In this document: piece after piece, positions 4,146 to 33,830 of the stretch | How the letters are laid out: each line of letters starts with the position of its first letter | Numbering within the stretch: position 1 is the first letter of the stretch | Assembly: GCA_009786825.1 (NCBI GenBank) | Contig: WQRI01000010.1 | Location: forward strand, 1 to 34,076 | Origin: Bacillota bacterium | Lineage (GTDB): Bacteria; Bacillota; Clostridia; Christensenellales; WQRI01 | Reading direction: 5' to 3' | Length of the DNA stretch: 34,076 bases | The notes under the pieces: generated by a model | Seen by the model: only the letters and a program-made list of their open reading frames with translations | The model's database searches: none | Told to the model about the DNA's origin: nothing | Made by a program: the position numbers and the translations under genes

Positions 4146-5564
4146 TTAAAATTTAGCATTTAACATTTTCCTAACTTGCCAACTTTTATGCCTTAAACTA
4201 ACAAAATCTCTCTTACCCGCTAATTCTCTTAAACTTATAAAATCTAAATTTTTATGCCTTTTACGCCTTTTTACTTTTTCTGCTTTTTCTAAGTTAGTTT
4301 TTTTGGCATTTGGTATTAGTGGGTGGTTTTTTAAATTAACTTTATCTATAACAAATCGGCGTAGCCTATAAGTGTTACCCCACCGCGCGTGTCCAAGCCA
4401 ACCCGCAAAACTAGCACGTATCTTTTCCGTAAGCAAGTTGTGCAAAGCCACATCTTTACTCGTATAAAACTTCTGCTTACCCTTATCGCTGTTCCCTGCC
4501 CGCTGTTCGCTGAGCAACTTGTTGCTCAACTTATCGCTGTTCCCTGCCCGCTGTTCGCTGAGCAACTTGTTGCTCAACTTATCGCTGTTCCCTGACCGCT
4601 GTTCGCTGCGCAGCCACAACTTGTTGCTCAGTTTATTAAATATCCGCACCTTGCGTTTAACATTCTGCTTAGACTTTTGTCTAAGTTTTTTATATATTTT
4701 GCCACTCTCGGTAACAAAAAATCTAAACCCTAAATAATCTACACCTTGTTTGGCAGGAAAAATCTGCGTCTTGTCGTTTAACTTCAACTTTAAATGCAAA
4801 TCTAAAAAAACTTTTATTTTATCTAAACATTGTCGCAAATGTTTTTTGCAAGGGTGTATAATAACAAAGTCGTCCATATATCTGTTATACCACTTAATTT
4901 TTAGCACTTCCTTTATGTATCTATCTAACTTGCTTAAATAAAATATTGCAAACAACTGGCTTGTAACATTACCAAGCGGTATGCCTATATCACCCGCCGT
5001 GCTATCTAAAATCTCATCTAACAACCACTTTGTATCCGCGCAATTTATATGCTTGTATAAATTGTGTTTAAGCGTTGGCTTGTGTATGCTGTAAAAATAC
5101 CTTTGTATATCCGCCTTTAATATGTAAAAGTCTAACCCGCTTTGCACCTTGCTACCTTTACTACCCTTAGCACCCTTACTACCCTTACTATAATTATACG
5201 CTTGCCTTAAAAACTTCTCTAACCGCCTCATTCCAAAATGTGTTCCCTTACCAACTTGACAAGCCACATTATCCCTAATAAGCAGGCTTGCAACTTTTGG
5301 GTAAAGCACCTTAAACACAGACATCACAACTACGCGGTCTGAGTAATTTATTGCGCTTATAAGCCGCCGCTTAGGCTCACTCACATAAAAATCTCTATAA
5401 CCACTAACCTTATAAGTTTTAGCAATAAGTGCAGAATGTAAAGCGTAAACATTACTGTTTAAATCAAACTCAAACTCTTGCACACTTTTTCTAAAACGCT
5501 TACCAGCCCGAGTCAACTTACTAGCCCTAAGCAAAGCCTTAAAACAAACAATTTTATCAAACAT
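4146..5564 (-). CDS. DGR reverse transcriptase
   Basis: The 472-residue protein has the reverse-transcriptase order: fingers (VSEPKRRLISAINYSDRVVV, about 61-80), LKADIQRYFYSI (149-160), GIPLGNVTSQ (194-203, the DGR-type motif ending in SQ), YMDDF (229-233) and DYLGFRF (276-282). The C-terminal SFAGWLGHARWGNTYRLRRF is also typical of DGR enzymes. It copies the template RNA with errors at adenines for transfer into the variable repeat. An AGGGGA ribosome site precedes the ATG. Two low-complexity insertions stand out: SKGSKGAKGSKGSK at 126-139 and about three 16-residue repeats (core SEQRAGNSDKLSNKL) at about 312-362 in the thumb. At 472 residues it is longer than usual for this group. The catalytic residues look intact. 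Confidence 0.94.
   Translation of the reverse strand: MFDKIVCFKALLRASKLTRAGKRFRKSVQEFEFDLNSNVYALHSALIAKTYKVSGYRDFYVSEPKRRLISAINYSDRVVVMSVFKVLYPKVASLLIRDNVACQVGKGTHFGMRRLEKFLRQAYNYSKGSKGAKGSKGSKVQSGLDFYILKADIQRYFYSIHKPTLKHNLYKHINCADTKWLLDEILDSTAGDIGIPLGNVTSQLFAIFYLSKLDRYIKEVLKIKWYNRYMDDFVIIHPCKKHLRQCLDKIKVFLDLHLKLKLNDKTQIFPAKQGVDYLGFRFFVTESGKIYKKLRQKSKQNVKRKVRIFNKLSNKLWLRSEQRSGNSDKLSNKLLSEQRAGNSDKLSNKLLSEQRAGNSDKGKQKFYTSKDVALHNLLTEKIRASFAGWLGHARWGNTYRLRRFVIDKVNLKNHPLIPNAKKTNLEKAEKVKRRKRHKNLDFISLRELAGKRDFVSLRHKSWQVRKMLNAKF
4480..4632. repeat. 48-bp tandem repeat inside the reverse transcriptase gene
   Basis: Two near-identical copies and one diverged copy of a 48-bp unit occur here. Each contains GCTGTTCGCTGAGCAA and, in the first two, the internal palindrome GAGCAACTTGTTGCTC. 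The unit is a multiple of three and keeps the frame. Related CGCTGTTCGCT words occur in intergenic repeats at 28960-29033 and 20449-20480. Confidence 0.85.
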
Positions 5565-5685: not shown

Positions 5686-5749
5686 CCCGCGCCAGCGGGT
5701 GCAACCACTTTACACTCTACACTTTACACTTTACACTTTACACTATTTA
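5686..5749. repeat. Composite repeat: CCCGCGC hairpin plus TTTACAC tandem repeats, copy B
   Basis: CCCGCGCCAGCGGG forms a small hairpin (CCCGC/GCGGG), followed by TGCAACCA and about six copies of a 7-bp unit ACTTTAC/ACTCTAC. The layout is the same as at 3694-3744. Confidence 0.8.
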
Positions 5750-16740: not shown

Positions 16741-16897
16741 CCCTACTTAAATTTTTCACCGCTTGAGTTTTATTTTCAAGTTGCACTAAAGTTTATCTGC
16801 AGATTGCACTAATAAAACAAACTCTAACTGCTGAAAAGTTTTGGTATTAATGGGCTTAACCATTCTCAATTCTTAATTCTTAATTCTCAATTTTCGT

Positions 16898-22647: not shown

Positions 22648-25188
22648 TTACGAGCCTGCCCTTACTGCTTGTAATTGCCTTAGTGCGTTGTATACAACTT
22701 CTACTTGGTAGATTGTTGCATTAAGCCCGCCTATTACCATATACCAACTAGGGCAACTAAGTGGTATTACTAAGTTGTTTTGAACCGCGGACAAATTTCT
22801 GAATAGCGTGTGCGTTTCTAAAATTACAGGAGATGGCACGCCGTCCGTCATAGAGCCTCTGTCTACTACAAATATAATATCCGCATCAACCCCCGCAAAG
22901 AAGCCCGGTCCTACATCTGTTCCGTGTGGGTTTGCGTTGTTAGCAACTGTGTGAGATGCTGCTGTGTCTTGAAGTAGTGCTTCGCCTACGCCAAACTCTC
23001 TGTGTATAAAAGAGTATCTACCAGATGCGCCAAATAACGCAACTGTCTGAACATTTAGTTGAACAATAAGCGCATTAGCGTTAAGGCTAGCAGCAAGTGC
23101 GTTTGTTGCTGCTATACGGCTTTGTAAATTATTAACTAAACCTGCCGCAACATCGCCAACTTGGAAAATTTGACCTAGAGTATGAACACTATCGATAAGA
23201 CCAGATATGTACTCATCTCCGCCCGTTCTTGCCGTTATAAATATTGTTGGCGCAATGTAGTTAAGCCTGCTTATGTGACCATTTCTCGCCCCACCCGCTG
23301 CCATTCTTGGACTTGCTATAATTAAATCTGGTCTAAGCCTCATAACTGTCTCAAAGTTTGGCGTATGAGGTTCGTGCGCGTTAATGTTTGTTAATGCACC
23401 CGGACCACTTTGTGGGAATACTTCGTCTAGGTCTGGCGTTGCCGTTATGTAAGATATACCAACAACATAGTTTTGAAGCCCTAAAGTTTTCATAATATCT
23501 AGTATACCGTGACACCCTACTATAACCCTTTGTGGACTAAGCGGAACGCGTGTAAACTGCTGAAAACGACTGTAACGTTGACCCGCCGGAATAGGCTGGT
23601 TTGCAATTGCTTGCCAGTTAACGTTTTCTACAAACGTGTAGCCAACTTCTCTATCAAATATAGCATTTAGCGCCGCTTGTATACGAGCCGTGTTCTGCGC
23701 TGCTATATCTAGTTGCATATAAGCCGCATTTATAAGCACGTTTATTCTATTACGCTCTGCCTCTACTGCGGCTACACTTATTGTATTACCCGGTAATAAA
23801 CTTATTAGGTGAGCCTCTGCCCCTGTAAGTGCATCATTTGAAGCCGCTAAAAACGCATTTAAGTTATTTTCTAAAACTTGCTCTGCATTTTCTATTCTGC
23901 CTAAAAGCCAAGCAATGTGTGCTGTAAAATCTCCCGCCAACAAAGCGTGGTCTAGCGCAACCCTAGCAGTATTTCTAACTGCATCTGTTGTTGCACTAAA
24001 GTAAGCATTTGAAAGCCTTGAAAGCGCAGTAGCATAAGCAGTAGCCAATTGCGACGCGCTTGGCGCTGCTGGTGTAAAAGTTACTACGCCCGCCGCATTT
24101 ATATTTGCGTTTAAACCTGTTATGCCTGCATCTGCCAAACCTGCTGTTAAATTAGTCTCTGCTACTATCATAGCGTTTACGCTATTGTTTATAGCATTAC
24201 CTAAAGCAGTCGTGGTTAATACCGCTCTTGCCGTTTCATTTGGGCGTGTAGATGGGCTTGCAAAAAGGTTACGTGTGTAATTCCATCTATCTGCCAAACC
24301 CTCTTCTTGAACTAAAACTCTTGTTATATTTGCATTAACAAAAACTTCTGCACTAGTTCTCGCATCTGCACGAGCGCCTGTTGACTGCTCGTATGCTGTG
24401 CGTGCATCGTTTCTAGCGGTTGTTAGCCCCGGTATACTAGCCTCTAAAGACGTTTTTCTAGCCTCAAGCCAAGTGATAAGTTGCGCCCTAGTATAGCCCA
24501 TTGCTAAATTTAAATCTGCACGAGCATCATCTCTTGCTTGAGATGCAGTCTCTGCTGCCACCCCTGCTTGCGTTAGCGCAGTTTCTGCATTGTTGCGTGC
24601 CGTAGTTGCTGCTGTAACTGCCGCTCGCCTTTGTGGTGTTTGTATAGCCGCATACTCTGCTTGCGCGTCGTATAAAGTGTTCTCAGCATTTGTAAGTGCC
24701 GTAGTTGCTGTTTGAACTGCTGTAGTTGCAGTTCTGGCTGCGTTTGCTGCTGCTGTGTATCTTGTTCTTAATTCTATGCGAAGTAAGCCTACTCCGTCCG
24801 CTTCTATGTTAACAAGTTCTAAATCTAATTCGGTACGGGTTATGCTCGCGTTAGCATTTGTTAGTGCAGTTTGCGCCGTTTGATATGCGTTTCTAGCATT
24901 GTTCTGTGCCGTTGTTAAAGCGTGAGTTGCTGCTGGCAGCCTATTGTTTCTTAGTGTAGTAACTGCAGTTTCTGCTGTGTTAAGTGCTGTTAGTTGCTCT
25001 CTTAAGCCTGTTATAACCGCACTTCTTGCTACTTCTACTTCTCTTGCCTCATTTAGTTGGTTAGATAACCTTGCTACTTCTGAAGCAACTGGGTCGTAAT
25101 CGTCATTAGACGAGCACCCTACAAATGTAATAAACGCACCCAGCGTTAATACACTTATGATTAATAAAGACATTAATCTTTTTTTCAT
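22648..25188 (-). CDS. Siderophore-binding lipoprotein with a very long helical stalk
   Basis: This 846-residue protein has a signal peptide with FVGC at 22-25, so it is a lipoprotein. Residues about 554-846 form a FecB/BtuF-type (type III) binding domain: RVIVGCHGILDIMKTLGLQN, then RLRPDLIIAS, and later GVDADIIFVVDRG and PLSCPSWYMVIGG. Usual members have about 320 residues. Here about 500 residues of Ala/Thr/Asn-rich helix (for example TALTNANASITRTELDLELV and ARNNAETALTQAGVAAETAS) are inserted between lipid anchor and domain, probably a coiled-coil stalk. The gene is last in a yclNOPQ-like operon and has its own strong promoter with an operator. The ligand is probably an iron siderophore; vitamin B12 or heme is not excluded. 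Confidence 0.85.
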   Translation of the reverse strand: MKKRLMSLLIISVLTLGAFITFVGCSSNDDYDPVASEVARLSNQLNEAREVEVARSAVITGLREQLTALNTAETAVTTLRNNRLPAATHALTTAQNNARNAYQTAQTALTNANASITRTELDLELVNIEADGVGLLRIELRTRYTAAANAARTATTAVQTATTALTNAENTLYDAQAEYAAIQTPQRRAAVTAATTARNNAETALTQAGVAAETASQARDDARADLNLAMGYTRAQLITWLEARKTSLEASIPGLTTARNDARTAYEQSTGARADARTSAEVFVNANITRVLVQEEGLADRWNYTRNLFASPSTRPNETARAVLTTTALGNAINNSVNAMIVAETNLTAGLADAGITGLNANINAAGVVTFTPAAPSASQLATAYATALSRLSNAYFSATTDAVRNTARVALDHALLAGDFTAHIAWLLGRIENAEQVLENNLNAFLAASNDALTGAEAHLISLLPGNTISVAAVEAERNRINVLINAAYMQLDIAAQNTARIQAALNAIFDREVGYTFVENVNWQAIANQPIPAGQRYSRFQQFTRVPLSPQRVIVGCHGILDIMKTLGLQNYVVGISYITATPDLDEVFPQSGPGALTNINAHEPHTPNFETVMRLRPDLIIASPRMAAGGARNGHISRLNYIAPTIFITARTGGDEYISGLIDSVHTLGQIFQVGDVAAGLVNNLQSRIAATNALAASLNANALIVQLNVQTVALFGASGRYSFIHREFGVGEALLQDTAASHTVANNANPHGTDVGPGFFAGVDADIIFVVDRGSMTDGVPSPVILETHTLFRNLSAVQNNLVIPLSCPSWYMVIGGLNATIYQVEVVYNALRQLQAVRAGS

Positions 25189-25300: not shown

Positions 25301-25326
25301 TAAAAGTTACCCTATGCTAACTTTAA
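25301..25326. promoter_or_regulatory. Second, weaker GTTA...TAAC dyad
   Basis: AAAGTTA (25303-25309) and TAACTTT (25318-25324) share outer words with the perfect palindrome just upstream on the minus strand. It could be a second operator in the leader of the binding-protein gene. Confidence 0.4.
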
Positions 25327-25335
25327 TGCCATTTT

Positions 25336-25359
25336 AAAAGTTAGCGTGCGCTAACTTTT
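25336..25359. promoter_or_regulatory. Perfect palindromic operator of the siderophore-binding gene
   Basis: Arms AAAAGTTAGCG and CGCTAACTTTT with a 2-nt spacer, placed right after the -10 box, over the expected transcription start. The core GTTAGC/GCTAAC recurs upstream of the first gene of the same operon (28652-28669). An iron-responsive repressor of DtxR or Fur type is the natural candidate, by position only. Confidence 0.7.
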
Positions 25360-25365
25360 GTTTAT

Positions 25366-25394
25366 AGTATACACTATTTTTAAACTCGTGTCAA
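25366..25394 (-). promoter_or_regulatory. Strong promoter of the siderophore-binding gene
   Basis: On the minus strand TTGACA (25394-25389), a 17-bp spacer and TATACT (25371-25366). It gives the binding protein expression beyond read-through from the operon. Confidence 0.85.
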
Positions 25395-25422: not shown

Positions 25423-26184
25423 TTAGACATTATGATAAACACACATTCGTCTACCGCCAGTTTCAACAATCTTACACTTTACATCAAAAACTTCACCTAT
25501 AACGCTCTCTTGCATAATTTCATTAGCAGGCGCTTGCAAAACTAACTTACCATCTTTAAGCGCTACAATCTCTTCTGAATAGCCCGCCGCACAATTAATG
25601 TCGTGTACAACGATAATAATAGTTTTTTGGGTTTGGTCTACAAAGTCTCTCAGCGTTCTCATTATTGCCGACGAGTGCTTCATATCAAGGTTGTTAAGCG
25701 GCTCGTCTAACAAAATGTGGTCTGTATCTTGCGCTATAATCATAGCAATAAAAGCACGTTGACGCTCACCACCGCTTAGTTGGTCTATAAACTTATTTTG
25801 CATATGAGTTAGGGATAGCCACTCTAAAGCCCTATCTATAATCTTTTCATCATCTTTATTAAGCCTGCCTCTAGAGTGCGGAAACCTACCAAAAGCCACT
25901 AACTCTCTTATCTTAAGCCTTATGTTAATTGTATTGTTTTGGCGAAGCGTTGCTACTTTTTTTGCAATTTCAGAATTTTTATACTCGTTTATGTTTTTGC
26001 CTTCAAAGTATACACTACCGCTATCTTGCTTTAAAAAGCGTGCCATTACAGATAACAAAGTAGACTTACCCGCACCATTAGACCCAACAAGGCTTGTGAT
26101 TTTTCCTGTTGGAAAAGTAAGGGACACATTGTCTAAAACTTTTCTAGTGCCATAGGCTTTTGTTACATTTTTTATCTCAAACAT
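25423..26184 (-). CDS. Siderophore ABC importer ATPase (YclP/FepC-like)
   Basis: This 253-residue ATPase is intact: Walker A GSNGAGKST, the family element VATLRQNNTINIRLKIRELV, FGRFPHSRGR, signature LSGGERQR, Walker B HILLDEPLNNLD and switch HDI. It belongs to the FecE/FepC/BtuD group and would drive uptake through the two permeases encoded just upstream. It lies 57 bp after the second permease gene. Confidence 0.93.
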   Translation of the reverse strand: MFEIKNVTKAYGTRKVLDNVSLTFPTGKITSLVGSNGAGKSTLLSVMARFLKQDSGSVYFEGKNINEYKNSEIAKKVATLRQNNTINIRLKIRELVAFGRFPHSRGRLNKDDEKIIDRALEWLSLTHMQNKFIDQLSGGERQRAFIAMIIAQDTDHILLDEPLNNLDMKHSSAIMRTLRDFVDQTQKTIIIVVHDINCAAGYSEEIVALKDGKLVLQAPANEIMQESVIGEVFDVKCKIVETGGRRMCVYHNV

Positions 26185-26241: not shown

Positions 26242-27417
26242 TTACGCACTTTTCTTTCTCTCCCTTAGTAGTAAGAAAATAAAGTATACACCGCCCACAA
26301 GGTTTATTATAACCGGCAATTGCATTTGCATTGTAACTATGTGATAAATTAAAAACTGACCAAGTGCTACAAAAATGGCTGCAACTAAAATGGCTGCCGG
26401 TATTGTGTATTTATGGCGGAAATTTTTAATAAGTTGGTAAGCCAAATTAGCGGCTAGTAAACCCAAAAACATTATAGGACCAACCAAAACTGTAGATACC
26501 GCAACCAAAATAGAAACAATAACTAAAATTCTTAAAACAACAATTTTGTGGTTAATGCCAAGCCCTATAGCATTTTCACGACCTAAACTTAATACATCTA
26601 AAACCCTTGTAGACGGCGTAAATAATATGGCAAGCACCGCCGCAACTGTTGCCCCTATCATAACGCTTAAATTAGGGTTTGTAAATGAAGCAAACATTCG
26701 CCCTTGTATAATGTCGAAGTCGTTAGGGTCTATTAATAACATCATATAAGATGTTAAAGAAGCAAACAATGTACTTAAAATAATACCTACTAACAGTAAT
26801 ATAAAAACGCCCTTAGACCCCCTTGTTAAAAGCGGTAAGAAAACTAGCAACGAGAATATAACCATTAGCACAACAGAAAAAGCGTAGTTGGCGTTGCCTT
26901 CTAAAACATAAACAACACCTACAAACTGGCTAGCCATTAAAAAAACTAGCGCTGTTTGAATAAACATATATACGTTTTCAAACCCTAAAACGCCGGGCGT
27001 TAAAATTCTAGCGCCTGTAACTGTTTGAAATATAACCGTAGAATATCCCACACAAACAGCAACTATAATTATCGCAAAAATTGTGGGGTATCTATTTTCT
27101 AAAGAAAACCTTAAAATGTTTAAGTAAAATTCGTCTCCCGTAGCACGATAATCAAAAACATCTGCTAAAAGCCCATAAAAAAGATACGCTACCAACAGTA
27201 TAAGTAAAAATACGCTCAACAAAATTAAAAGCGTTTTGGGTCTTTTTTGAAGGCTTTCTGTAAACGCTTTAAACCTAGTAAAAAGGCGCTTGAACCAAGG
27301 TGGCTCGTCTTTATAGTTGTCTTCTACTAGCCCCGCATTTGAAGGCTCTAGCGCGTTTGGGCTGGTATCAAGTGGGCTAGTTTCGTCGTTTGCAAGGTTA
27401 ACTTCGTTTTTATGCAC
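26242..27417 (-). CDS. Siderophore ABC importer permease 2 (FecCD family, YclO-like)
   Basis: This 391-residue protein has a hydrophilic N-terminus of about 55 residues (DETSPLDTSPNALEPSNAGL) followed by about nine hydrophobic segments. FecCD landmarks include TGARILTPGVLGFENVYMFI, then LGRENAIGLGINHK, then GPIMFLGLLAANLAYQLIK. It forms the channel with the permease encoded upstream, whose stop it overlaps by 8 nt. The long N-terminal tail is not usual for the family. Confidence 0.92.
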   Translation of the reverse strand: MHKNEVNLANDETSPLDTSPNALEPSNAGLVEDNYKDEPPWFKRLFTRFKAFTESLQKRPKTLLILLSVFLLILLVAYLFYGLLADVFDYRATGDEFYLNILRFSLENRYPTIFAIIIVAVCVGYSTVIFQTVTGARILTPGVLGFENVYMFIQTALVFLMASQFVGVVYVLEGNANYAFSVVLMVIFSLLVFLPLLTRGSKGVFILLLVGIILSTLFASLTSYMMLLIDPNDFDIIQGRMFASFTNPNLSVMIGATVAAVLAILFTPSTRVLDVLSLGRENAIGLGINHKIVVLRILVIVSILVAVSTVLVGPIMFLGLLAANLAYQLIKNFRHKYTIPAAILVAAIFVALGQFLIYHIVTMQMQLPVIINLVGGVYFIFLLLRERKKSA

Positions 27418-28594
27418 TGCCTGCCCTCCTTTTTGCTAGTATCAAAAACAAGAAAACAATGCCGCCTAAAACGCCAACCGTAAGCCCTACAGGAATTTCG
27501 AAAAGCGGCCACAAGACAGCCCTTGATATAATGTCGCAAATAAGTAAAAATGTTGCTCCGCCTACCATAGTTACAGGTATTGCTCGGCGCAAATTGTCCC
27601 CCATATACATAGACACAATATTCGGAACAATTAGTCCTAAAAAGGCAATAACACCCGCCATTAAAACAATTGATGCAGTTATTATAGCAACAATAACCAG
27701 CCCTATGTTTACTGTAAGCCTATAGTTTAAGCCCAAATTTTTTGCTACACCCTCTCCAAGCCCCGCCATCATAAAAAAATTAGCAAATATATATGCTACA
27801 ACTACAAAAGATGAGGTGATTAAAATTGGCGCCCAAACTGCCCAACCCGACAACTGCCACGCAAAAGATGCAACAAACATTGTTTGAGCAATCTGTACGC
27901 CCGCTGCAGTTTGTAAAACTATAAAAGTTGTGACGGACGCTATTACACCGCCATAAACAATACCAATAAGTGGCACGAATTCTGCGTTTTTAATTTTAAT
28001 ACGCTCTATCAAAAAGATAAAGAACATTGTGGTTGCAAGGGTTAAAGCAAAAGCAAATGCCCCTTGCGTTAGTGCTGCCGCTCCCGGTATTAATATCATA
28101 GCCAAAACTGCACCAAACCTAGCCCCATCTAGTGTACCCGCAGTCATAGGGGATACAAACTTGTTAGCGGTAAGTGTTTGCATTATAAGCCCGCATATGC
28201 TCATACCAGCACCCGCAGCAATTATGGCTAGCGTGCGCGGCACAGCAGTATGAATAAACAAATCGTATGCCGTAATAGGTCTGTCGTCCGACCTAGAAAA
28301 AATATCTCTTATCGGCATATTTGGTATTAAAAAAAGCGAAACCACGCTTGAGGCTACAAAAAAGAAAATCAACAGCCCTAAAACAGTTCGGCTATCACTT
28401 ATAAAACGCACAAAGCGGTTGTTATGCTTTTTAGGTTTTTTACTAGCAGTACAAGTATCGCTCTCGCAAAAACTCTCGCAATCAGTTGCGTTATTTGTCA
28501 ATACTATTGCACCCGCCGCCACTAGTGTTGCGCCCGCTGTTTCTGCGCCTGATATTGCTTCATTAGTCTTTGGTGTATCTGATTGTGTTTTCAA
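27410..28594 (-). CDS. Siderophore ABC importer permease 1 (FecCD family, YclN-like)
   Basis: This 394-residue protein starts at a TTG codon with AAGGAG 7 nt upstream. The first 60 or so residues are hydrophilic, with four Cys (CESFCESDTC) and a Lys-rich stretch, an extension not usual for FecCD proteins. The membrane part shows the family motifs: RTLAIIAAGAGMSICGLIMQ, ANKFVSPMTAGTLDGARFGA and GVIAFLGLIVPNIV. It is first gene of the operon, with a GTTAGC palindrome upstream. Confidence 0.92.
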   Translation of the reverse strand: MKTQSDTPKTNEAISGAETAGATLVAAGAIVLTNNATDCESFCESDTCTASKKPKKHNNRFVRFISDSRTVLGLLIFFFVASSVVSLFLIPNMPIRDIFSRSDDRPITAYDLFIHTAVPRTLAIIAAGAGMSICGLIMQTLTANKFVSPMTAGTLDGARFGAVLAMILIPGAAALTQGAFAFALTLATTMFFIFLIERIKIKNAEFVPLIGIVYGGVIASVTTFIVLQTAAGVQIAQTMFVASFAWQLSGWAVWAPILITSSFVVVAYIFANFFMMAGLGEGVAKNLGLNYRLTVNIGLVIVAIITASIVLMAGVIAFLGLIVPNIVSMYMGDNLRRAIPVTMVGGATFLLICDIISRAVLWPLFEIPVGLTVGVLGGIVFLFLILAKRRAGSA

Positions 28595-28651: not shown

Positions 28652-28669
28652 AGTTAGCAAATGCTAACT
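28652..28669. promoter_or_regulatory. Palindromic operator of the siderophore operon
   Basis: AGTTAGCA and TGCTAACT with a 2-nt spacer. On the minus strand TTGCTA within it can act as -35 for TACTAT 18 bp downstream, so a bound repressor would block the polymerase. The half-site is shared with 25336-25359. Confidence 0.68.
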
Positions 28670-30385: not shown

Positions 30386-30437
30386 GAATGTTAAATTTTA
30401 AATGTTTAATGTTAAATGTTTTCACCGCTAGCGCGGG
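30386..30437. repeat. Composite repeat: CCCGCGC hairpin plus AATGTTAAAT tandem repeats, copy C (inverted)
   Basis: On the minus strand CCCGCGCTAGCGGTG is followed by AAAACA and tandem TTTAACAT-type units. The layout is the same as at 3694-3744 and 5686-5749. It ends just downstream of the four-helix gene. Confidence 0.75.
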
Positions 30438-30444
30438 CAAATTT

Positions 30445-30804
30445 TTATTTGCTTGTATTAGAGTTTTTAACAATTGAAACTAGTAGTTTAACAATCTCAA
30501 TACAGTCTTTATAAATACTGTCAAATTGCTCATCAGTTAAATAATCTGTTTCGCGCAAAAGTTCAAGCCAATATTTAGTTTCGTTTGCTTCCTTCGATGC
30601 TATAGCCATTTTATTAGCAAAATCTTTCTTACTTGTAGCGTGCTGAGCCTCCGCAACATTTGCTCCCACGCTTGTTGCTGATTTTAACAACTGTTTAGAT
30701 AATATAAATTCTCTCTTATCTTCAGACAAATACTTGTACAAATTGACAACTCTAATTGCGAATTTAAAACTTTTATCTTTAACTACGTTATCTCTCATAA
30801 ACAT
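30445..30804 (-). CDS. Four-helix-bundle protein (S23/Avd superfamily)
   Basis: The protein has 119 residues from the ATG at 30804 (or 117 from 30798). An upstream in-frame ATG at 30885 would add 27 residues not found in the family. Motifs DNVVKDKSFKFAIRVVNLYK, LLKSATSVGANVAEAQHATS and KEANETKYWLELLRETDYL are those of the S23 family, first found in rRNA intervening sequences and structurally related to Avd of DGRs. Its cellular role is unknown. It interrupts the pstB-phoU order and is bordered on both sides by AATGTTAAAT-type tandem repeats, so it is probably an insertion. Confidence 0.88.
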   Translation of the reverse strand: MFMRDNVVKDKSFKFAIRVVNLYKYLSEDKREFILSKQLLKSATSVGANVAEAQHATSKKDFANKMAIASKEANETKYWLELLRETDYLTDEQFDSIYKDCIEIVKLLVSIVKNSNTSK

Positions 30805-30904
30805 TATTTTAACTTCTAAGGGCTTGATAATATTCTCTATGGCGCAGACATTAAACTTTACAAATTGCCGCAAAACAAATCGCAAACTGTTAAAACGTAT
30901 AGTA

Positions 30905-33737: not shown

Positions 33738-33830
33738 AATGAATAATGAATATTGAATAATGAATAATGAATAATGGTTACAAACCATTTAATGCTTTTA
33801 CATTTGAACAGTTAGAAATTTGTTTTAAAT

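What the first reader, a model, noticed from the sequence alone, without database searches (positions are those of the whole stretch)
22648..25188. Siderophore-binding lipoprotein on a ~500-residue helical stalk
The binding domain is ordinary, but between the lipid anchor and the domain lie about 500 residues of Ala/Thr/Asn-rich predicted helix. A stalk this long could lift the binding domain through a thick wall or S-layer, or present it on the surface to capture siderophores. It is more than twice the family size.
Basis: partly seen in the sequence, partly recalled or inferred. Interest (0 to 1): 0.62.

Follow-up and report, generated by a model that had tools for sequence, protein, structure and literature searches.

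The report
Iron-siderophore binding protein on helical stalk
A bacterial lipoprotein that appears to catch iron carriers (catecholate siderophores) has about 490 extra, mostly helical residues between its membrane anchor and its otherwise ordinary binding domain; relatives carry stalks of about 0, 135 and 210 residues, so stalk length seems adjustable, probably to hold the trap further out from the cell.

Summary
One intact 846-aa frame (22648-25188, minus) encodes a lipoprotein signal (C25), about 490 residues of Ala/Thr/Asn-rich, mostly helical sequence (26-514) and a Peripla_BP_2 domain. It is not a joining artefact: coding signal is uniform, and syntenic relatives (FecCD-FecCD-ATPase-binding protein) carry the same domain behind stalks of about 0, 135 and 210 residues. 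Homologues sampled across the class lack it. The domain keeps all five residues that hold ferric catecholates in CeuE (R628, R724, R777, H755, Y816). Two palindromes (GTTAGCNNNNGCTAAC) follow its promoter; the same palindrome precedes the permease operon, a DtxR-type regulator gene and the relatives' operons, suggesting iron-responsive control. Best explanation: a length-variable, probably folded-back helical spacer holds the receptor away from the membrane. The S-layer version is not supported (no SLH or CWB2 found). The odd composition fits a clade-wide trait: exported proteins nearly lack lysine (about 1% against 9% in cytosolic proteins), as in alkaliphiles; the nearest named relative comes from a highly alkaline termite hindgut. 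New variant of a known kind; stalk function is inferred, not shown.

The parts
22648..25188 (-). Gene for the stalked siderophore-binding lipoprotein, 846 aa
   Evidence: single open frame, uniform coding signal
25114..25188 (-). Lipoprotein signal peptide, residues 1-25, ending FVGC (C25 lipidated)
   Evidence: direct reading; same MKKK/R...GC start in three relatives
23647..25113 (-). Helical stalk, residues 26-514
   Evidence: composition, helix prediction, periodicity, no Pfam match
22651..23646 (-). Peripla_BP_2 domain, CeuE/YclQ-like, residues 515-846
   Evidence: PF01497 E 9e-20; YclQ (3gfv) E 1e-27
23305..23307 (-). R628, arginine of the catecholate-binding triad
   Evidence: alignment to solved structures, invariant in four relatives
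23017..23019 (-). R724, arginine of the triad
22924..22926 (-). H755, Fe(III) ligand position (Geobacillus His218, CeuE His227)
22858..22860 (-). R777, arginine of the triad
22741..22743 (-). Y816, Fe(III) ligand position (Geobacillus Tyr279, CeuE Tyr288)
25365..25394 (-). Promoter-like TTGACA-18-TATACT
   Evidence: direct reading; the same arrangement lies before the binding-protein genes of G299 and G435
25337..25358 (.). Palindrome 1 AAAGTTAGCGTGCGCTAACTTT, probable DtxR-type operator just after the promoter
25303..25324 (.). Palindrome 2, 34 nt from palindrome 1, one mismatch in the core
   Evidence: identical 34-nt spacing in G299
25423..26184 (-). ATPase of the importer, FecE/FhuC-like
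   Evidence: PF00005, NF008409 243 bits, below its cut-off
26242..27417 (-). FecCD permease 2
   Evidence: PF01032 E 1e-42
27410..28594 (-). FecCD permease 1
   Evidence: PF01032 E 3e-54
28653..28668 (.). Exact palindrome GTTAGCAAATGCTAAC before the permease operon

Best explanation
This is the receptor of a FecCD-type ABC importer for ferric catecholate siderophores, in which the short lipoprotein linker has grown into a long, length-variable helical spacer. Lipidated C25 holds the protein in the membrane. About 490 residues of helix-turn-helix stalk hold the CeuE/YclQ-type domain away from the membrane, probably within or beyond the cell wall, where it binds ferric siderophore through R628, R724, R777, H755 and Y816 and hands it to the two FecCD permeases and the ATPase encoded just upstream. 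When iron is short, a DtxR-type repressor leaves the palindromes just downstream of the promoter and the binding-protein gene is expressed from its own promoter. The Lys-poor, Ala/Thr/Asn-rich composition partly reflects a clade-wide adaptation of exported proteins, probably to high outside pH. Shown by sequence: operon, domain, binding residues, palindromes, stalk, graded stalk lengths, lysine depletion. Inferred: regulation, substrate, spacer role, physical reach (about 73 nm as one helix, about 24-37 nm if folded in three or two), alkaline habitat.
For: Domain and nearest structures; five binding residues kept and invariant in four relatives; operon with FecCD x2 and ATPase; stalks of about 0, 135, 210 and 490 residues in syntenic relatives; stalk predicted helical in both models with helix periodicity; palindromes at both promoters, before a DtxR-type gene and in relatives with the same spacing; about 0.08 exact cores expected in the genome, three found.
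Against: No direct evidence of surface exposure or reach. Structure models are of low confidence. One relative (G433) has no stalk, so the stalk is dispensable for the importer in at least that lineage. A receptor far from the membrane must still dock on the permease, which a stiff long stalk would hinder; a folded or flexible stalk is needed. Periodicity in the relatives' stalks is weak (G299 62 of 300, G435 25 of 300 shuffles reach it). The window's palindrome count including mismatched sites is not above chance (28 of 100 shuffles).
Confidence: 0.55

Rival explanations
1. The stalk is an assembly or docking device: its helices form coiled coils with other copies, with the permeases' N-terminal tails or with the wall, clustering receptors near the transporter rather than lifting them outwards.
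For: Helix periodicity and heptad-like autocorrelation at lags 7 and 14; helices of equal length separated by short turns, which suggest bundles.
Against: Stalk length and sequence vary widely among relatives, which a specific interface would not tolerate easily. No oligomer prediction could be run.
Confidence: 0.2
2. The stalk is a near-neutral, low-complexity expansion of the lipoprotein linker with no particular function.
For: Ala/Thr-rich composition, degenerate DNA repeats in the stalk, a relative without it, no conserved stalk sequence.
Against: Helix periodicity kept above shuffles and an open frame through 490 codons; three lineages keep a stalk.
Confidence: 0.15
3. The stalk is a cleavable tether: the domain is shed as a soluble siderophore scavenger.
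For: A long exposed linker is open to proteases; this rests on analogy only.
Against: No evidence for cleavage; nothing in the operon encodes a protease or a second receptor.
Confidence: 0.05
4. Sequence or assembly error joining two genes.
For: The genome is a fragmented draft (103 contigs).
Against: The same architecture occurs in two other genomes with synteny and matching palindromes; uniform GC3 and open frame; the lipobox precedes the stalk and no second signal peptide lies before the domain.
Confidence: 0.02

Closest known systems
CeuE (Campylobacter jejuni) and its Geobacillus homologues (PDB 8b7x, 8bf6)
   Same: Same fold family; Fe ligands His and Tyr and three Arg at matching positions.
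   Different: Those have a linker of about 23 residues between the lipidated Cys and the domain (PMC10394670); here about 490 helical residues.
YclQ of Bacillus subtilis (3gfv)
   Same: Nearest solved structure, E 1e-27 over the whole domain; lipoprotein receptor of a FecCD-type importer (the last point is general knowledge).
   Different: No stalk; about 300-aa protein.
Staphylococcal SstD (NF047879)
   Same: Weak but best NCBIfam match, catecholamine-iron receptor (78.6 bits).
   Different: Far below the curated cut-off of 450 bits; not a member.
Other extended Peripla_BP_2 proteins of the order: pilin-type start (G130, G812), PBP_like_2 fusion (G064), SLH (G021), unassigned repeats (G057)
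   Same: A siderophore-type binding domain joined to extra surface or anchor modules.
   Different: Unrelated extra modules; none is a helical stalk.

Membership tests
CeuE/YclQ-type catecholate siderophore-binding proteins (Peripla_BP_2) | Peripla_BP_2 domain above the curated cut-off | tested here: met
   71.5 bits against 27.5
CeuE/YclQ-type catecholate siderophore-binding proteins (Peripla_BP_2) | Fe ligands His and Tyr and three catechol-binding Arg | tested here: met
   H755, Y816, R628, R724, R777; invariant in four relatives
CeuE/YclQ-type catecholate siderophore-binding proteins (Peripla_BP_2) | Binding of ferric catecholate | not testable with these tools
   needs ligand titration
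FecCD-type (BtuCD-like) ABC importer | Two FecCD permeases and a FecE/FhuC-like ATPase in the operon | tested here: met
   same order in relatives
SstD (NF047879) | Score above the curated cut-off | tested here: not met
   78.6 against 450 bits
DtxR-type metal-dependent regulon | A regulator with PF01325 and PF02742 in the genome | tested here: met
   L038 807-1277 in the window's genome; also beside the operon in G299
DtxR-type metal-dependent regulon | Shared palindrome before regulator and importer genes | tested here: met
   half-sites resemble the GTTAG/CTAAC of the IdeR consensus but the spacing differs
DtxR-type metal-dependent regulon | Metal-dependent binding of the regulator to the palindrome | not testable with these tools
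   needs EMSA with Fe(II) and Mn(II)
S-layer-associated lipoprotein | SLH or CWB2 anchoring modules in protein or genome | tested here: not met
   none found in the 86%-complete genome
Coiled-coil stalk protein | Long helices with heptad-like periodicity | tested here: inconclusive
   helical in both models but low pLDDT; periodicity above shuffles in the window's protein, weak in relatives

The most novel reading that the evidence does not exclude
A clade of gut Bacillota living at very high outside pH carries siderophore receptors on helical stalks whose length sets how far through or beyond the wall the receptor reaches; the receptor collects ferric siderophore at the outer wall face and returns it to the transporter, a reach-out mode that I do not know to have been described for monoderm ABC importers.
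Probability: 0.25. Interest if true: 0.7.

Novelty: new variant of a known kind. Interest (0 to 1): 0.45.

Why it matters
Lipoprotein receptors of monoderm ABC importers are usually thought of as sitting close to the membrane on short linkers. A syntenic series with stalks of about 0, 135, 210 and 490 residues offers a natural experiment on whether receptor height matters for uptake. The near absence of lysine in exported proteins of this clade, while cytosolic proteins have normal lysine, suggests a sequence test for life at high outside pH in uncultured gut bacteria.

Tried and rejected
Joining artefact: rejected. S-layer anchoring: no SLH or CWB2. Diderm envelope with the stalk spanning a periplasm: no Omp85; one family only, incomplete genome. 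Tandem-repeat stalk: only weak internal similarity. Second copy of the stalk in the genome: none. Genome-contig scan with the whole protein found nothing; a two-row domain alignment found only the G299 record. Full-length and stalk-only AlphaFold models were too uncertain for a fold search, so none was run; relatives known only from genome-search loci were not handed to the predictor, following its stated rule. Literature searches for stalked binding proteins gave nothing on point.

Full report
OBSERVATION. The ORF at 22648-25188 (-) is real and intact: 846 aa from ATG with an upstream AAGGAGT. GC3 stays at 0.26-0.36 along the whole frame and all other frames hold stops. Residues 1-25 are a lipoprotein signal ending FVGC. 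Peripla_BP_2 covers 562-808. Between them, residues 26-535 are A 21.6%, T 12.0%, L 9.8%, N 9.4%, with no cysteine and one lysine. No Pfam family matches there. AlphaFold2 gives about nine helices from 33 to 514 and the first real strand at 517; confidence is low (mean pLDDT 43 full length with two sequences, 52 stalk alone; best 63-78 around residues 135-235). Hydrophobic helix periodicity exceeds shuffles (1 of 300 reaches it). I therefore accept a helical stalk of about 490 residues, but with breaks and likely hairpins, not one rod.

SIZE. Among about 110 PF01497 frames in 151 genomes of the order this is the longest. The other long ones proved to be different things: a domain behind unassigned repeats (G057), an open frame that runs upstream of an ordinary lipoprotein start (G017), a PBP_like_2 fusion (G064), SLH-bearing proteins (G021) and a pilin-type fusion (G130).

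RELATIVES. A search of 396 genomes of the order found one clear relative, G299 (38% identity over the domain, E 7e-51). Its record is WRAY01000005.1, Bacillota MAG Lab288P1bin55; Lab288 is the soil-feeding termite Labiotermes labralis (PMC7024585). Its binding protein (573 aa) has a lipobox and about 210 residues before the domain, in the same gene order FecCD-FecCD-ATPase-binding protein, with a DtxR-type regulator nearby. Searching the family of G299 gave G435 (486 aa, stalk about 135) and G433 (350 aa, no stalk), again after the same ATPase. Sixteen further homologues in 391 genomes of the class have open frames of 318-403 aa. The stalk is thus, in this sample, a clade feature of variable length.

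FUNCTION OF THE DOMAIN. The nearest solved structures are YclQ and two Geobacillus-group CeuE homologues. CeuE binds ferric catecholates with His227, Tyr288, Arg118, Arg205 and Arg249 (PMC5382913); the Geobacillus stearothermophilus ligands are His218 and Tyr279 (PMC10394670). By the numbering of the alignment, H755 is His218 and Y816 is Tyr279; R628, R724 and R777 occupy the arginine positions. All five are invariant in the four relatives. I infer a ferric catecholate receptor. It is not SstD itself (78.6 against 450 bits).

REGULATION. TTGACA-18-TATACT (25394-25365) is followed at once by two palindromes with core GTTAGCNNNNGCTAAC at 25340-25355 (exact) and 25306-25321 (one mismatch). An exact third lies before the permease gene at 28653. 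In 1.7 Mb about 0.08 exact cores are expected from base composition and three are seen, two of them here. In the window alone, counting sites with up to two mismatches, the number is not above shuffles (28 of 100 reach it), so the argument rests on exact matches and position. G299 has the pair before the binding protein with identical 34-nt spacing and two more before the permease; G435 has the pair at 33 nt; G433 has them only before the permease (gene positions). A regulator with both DtxR-type Pfam domains in the window's genome has two such palindromes upstream. I infer metal-dependent, most likely iron-dependent, repression; manganese is not excluded.

COMPOSITION. The mature protein has 2 Lys and 53 Arg. 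This is not special to it: 16 lipoproteins found in 786 kb of the genome average 1.3% Lys against 8.9% in cytosolic ORFs, with Arg 6.2 against 4.7%; G299 and G433 show the same (1.2 and 1.4%); lipoproteins of other members of the order average 4.2% (Mann-Whitney p 0.001 for G000 and 0.0005 for G299 plus G433). The classes were made by simple sequence rules, and the control set consists mostly of homologous binding proteins from small loci, so the contrast is indicative. Fewer Lys and more Arg, Asn and Gln are described for the alkaline adaptation of M-protease (PMC8153356). The anterior hindgut of soil-feeding termites exceeds pH 12 (PMC8784593) and P1 is called highly alkaline in PMC7024585. 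The window's own habitat is unknown; a high-pH niche is an inference.

MECHANISM. I favour a spacer (0.55). As one helix 489 residues would span about 73 nm; folded in two or three, 37 or 24 nm, comparable to a monoderm wall (general knowledge). Clustering or docking (0.2), near-neutral growth (0.15) and shedding (0.05) remain. No SLH, CWB2 or Omp85 was found, so the S-layer version is not supported. Nothing here shows surface exposure. Another lipoprotein of this genome, with a short coiled-coil-like start and collagen-like repeats before a C-terminal part, suggests that raised lipoproteins are not unique here.

NOVELTY. The importer and receptor are a known kind; the long, graded helical stalk is a new variant. 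I found no paper on such stalks in the held library, which is a limited search.

Noticed in passing
G000 (L089-L128 and window), G299 (L129-L134, L064), G433 (L135-L139, L068): Exported proteins nearly lack lysine (lipoproteins 1.2-1.4% against 8-9% in cytosolic ORFs) and are richer in arginine, an alkaliphile-like signature across this clade.
   Followed up: partly
L054 2763-4103 (-) in G130; L150 1504-2829 (+) in G812: A siderophore-type binding protein whose N-terminus is a type IV pilin/prepilin segment (PF07963 plus PF01497 in one frame), followed by FecCD; kept in two genomes of one genus at 72% identity, while relatives in the family lack the pilin part.
   Followed up: partly
L104 440-1156 (+), G000 contig C6: A lipoprotein with a short coiled-coil-like start, collagen-like GPQGPAGNDG repeats and a C-terminal part: another possible stalked lipoprotein of this genome.
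   Followed up: no
L049 2598-4955 (-) in G057: A 785-aa frame with repeats before a Peripla_BP_2 domain; the repeats look NEAT-like by eye but Pfam does not confirm it.
   Followed up: no
L053 1752-4655 (+) in G021; L051 3801-5570 (+) in G064: Two tandem Peripla_BP_2 proteins, the first with an SLH match near its C-terminus (the second was not scanned), and a PBP_like_2 plus Peripla_BP_2 fusion.
   Followed up: no
window 4146-5564 (-): Reverse transcriptase-like ORF (PF00078, E 3e-11) with a 48-nt tandem repeat inside at 4482-4612.
   Followed up: no
window 30445-30885 (-): A 23S rRNA intervening-sequence protein family member lying between a PhoU gene and an ABC ATPase gene.
   Followed up: no
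window, many places (e.g. 5706-5744, 16862-16892, 30387-30420, 33738-33776): Many short tandem arrays with a period of 7 bases and differing units.
   Followed up: no
G000:C22:3653-3668 (L036 1501-1516): A third exact GTTAGCNNNNGCTAAC palindrome, at the C-terminal end of a large membrane-protein ORF rather than clearly before an iron gene.
   Followed up: no
L109 8773-11312 (-), G000 contig C8: Three tandem paralogous lipoproteins of 260-288 aa with closely similar signal peptides and starts.
   Followed up: no
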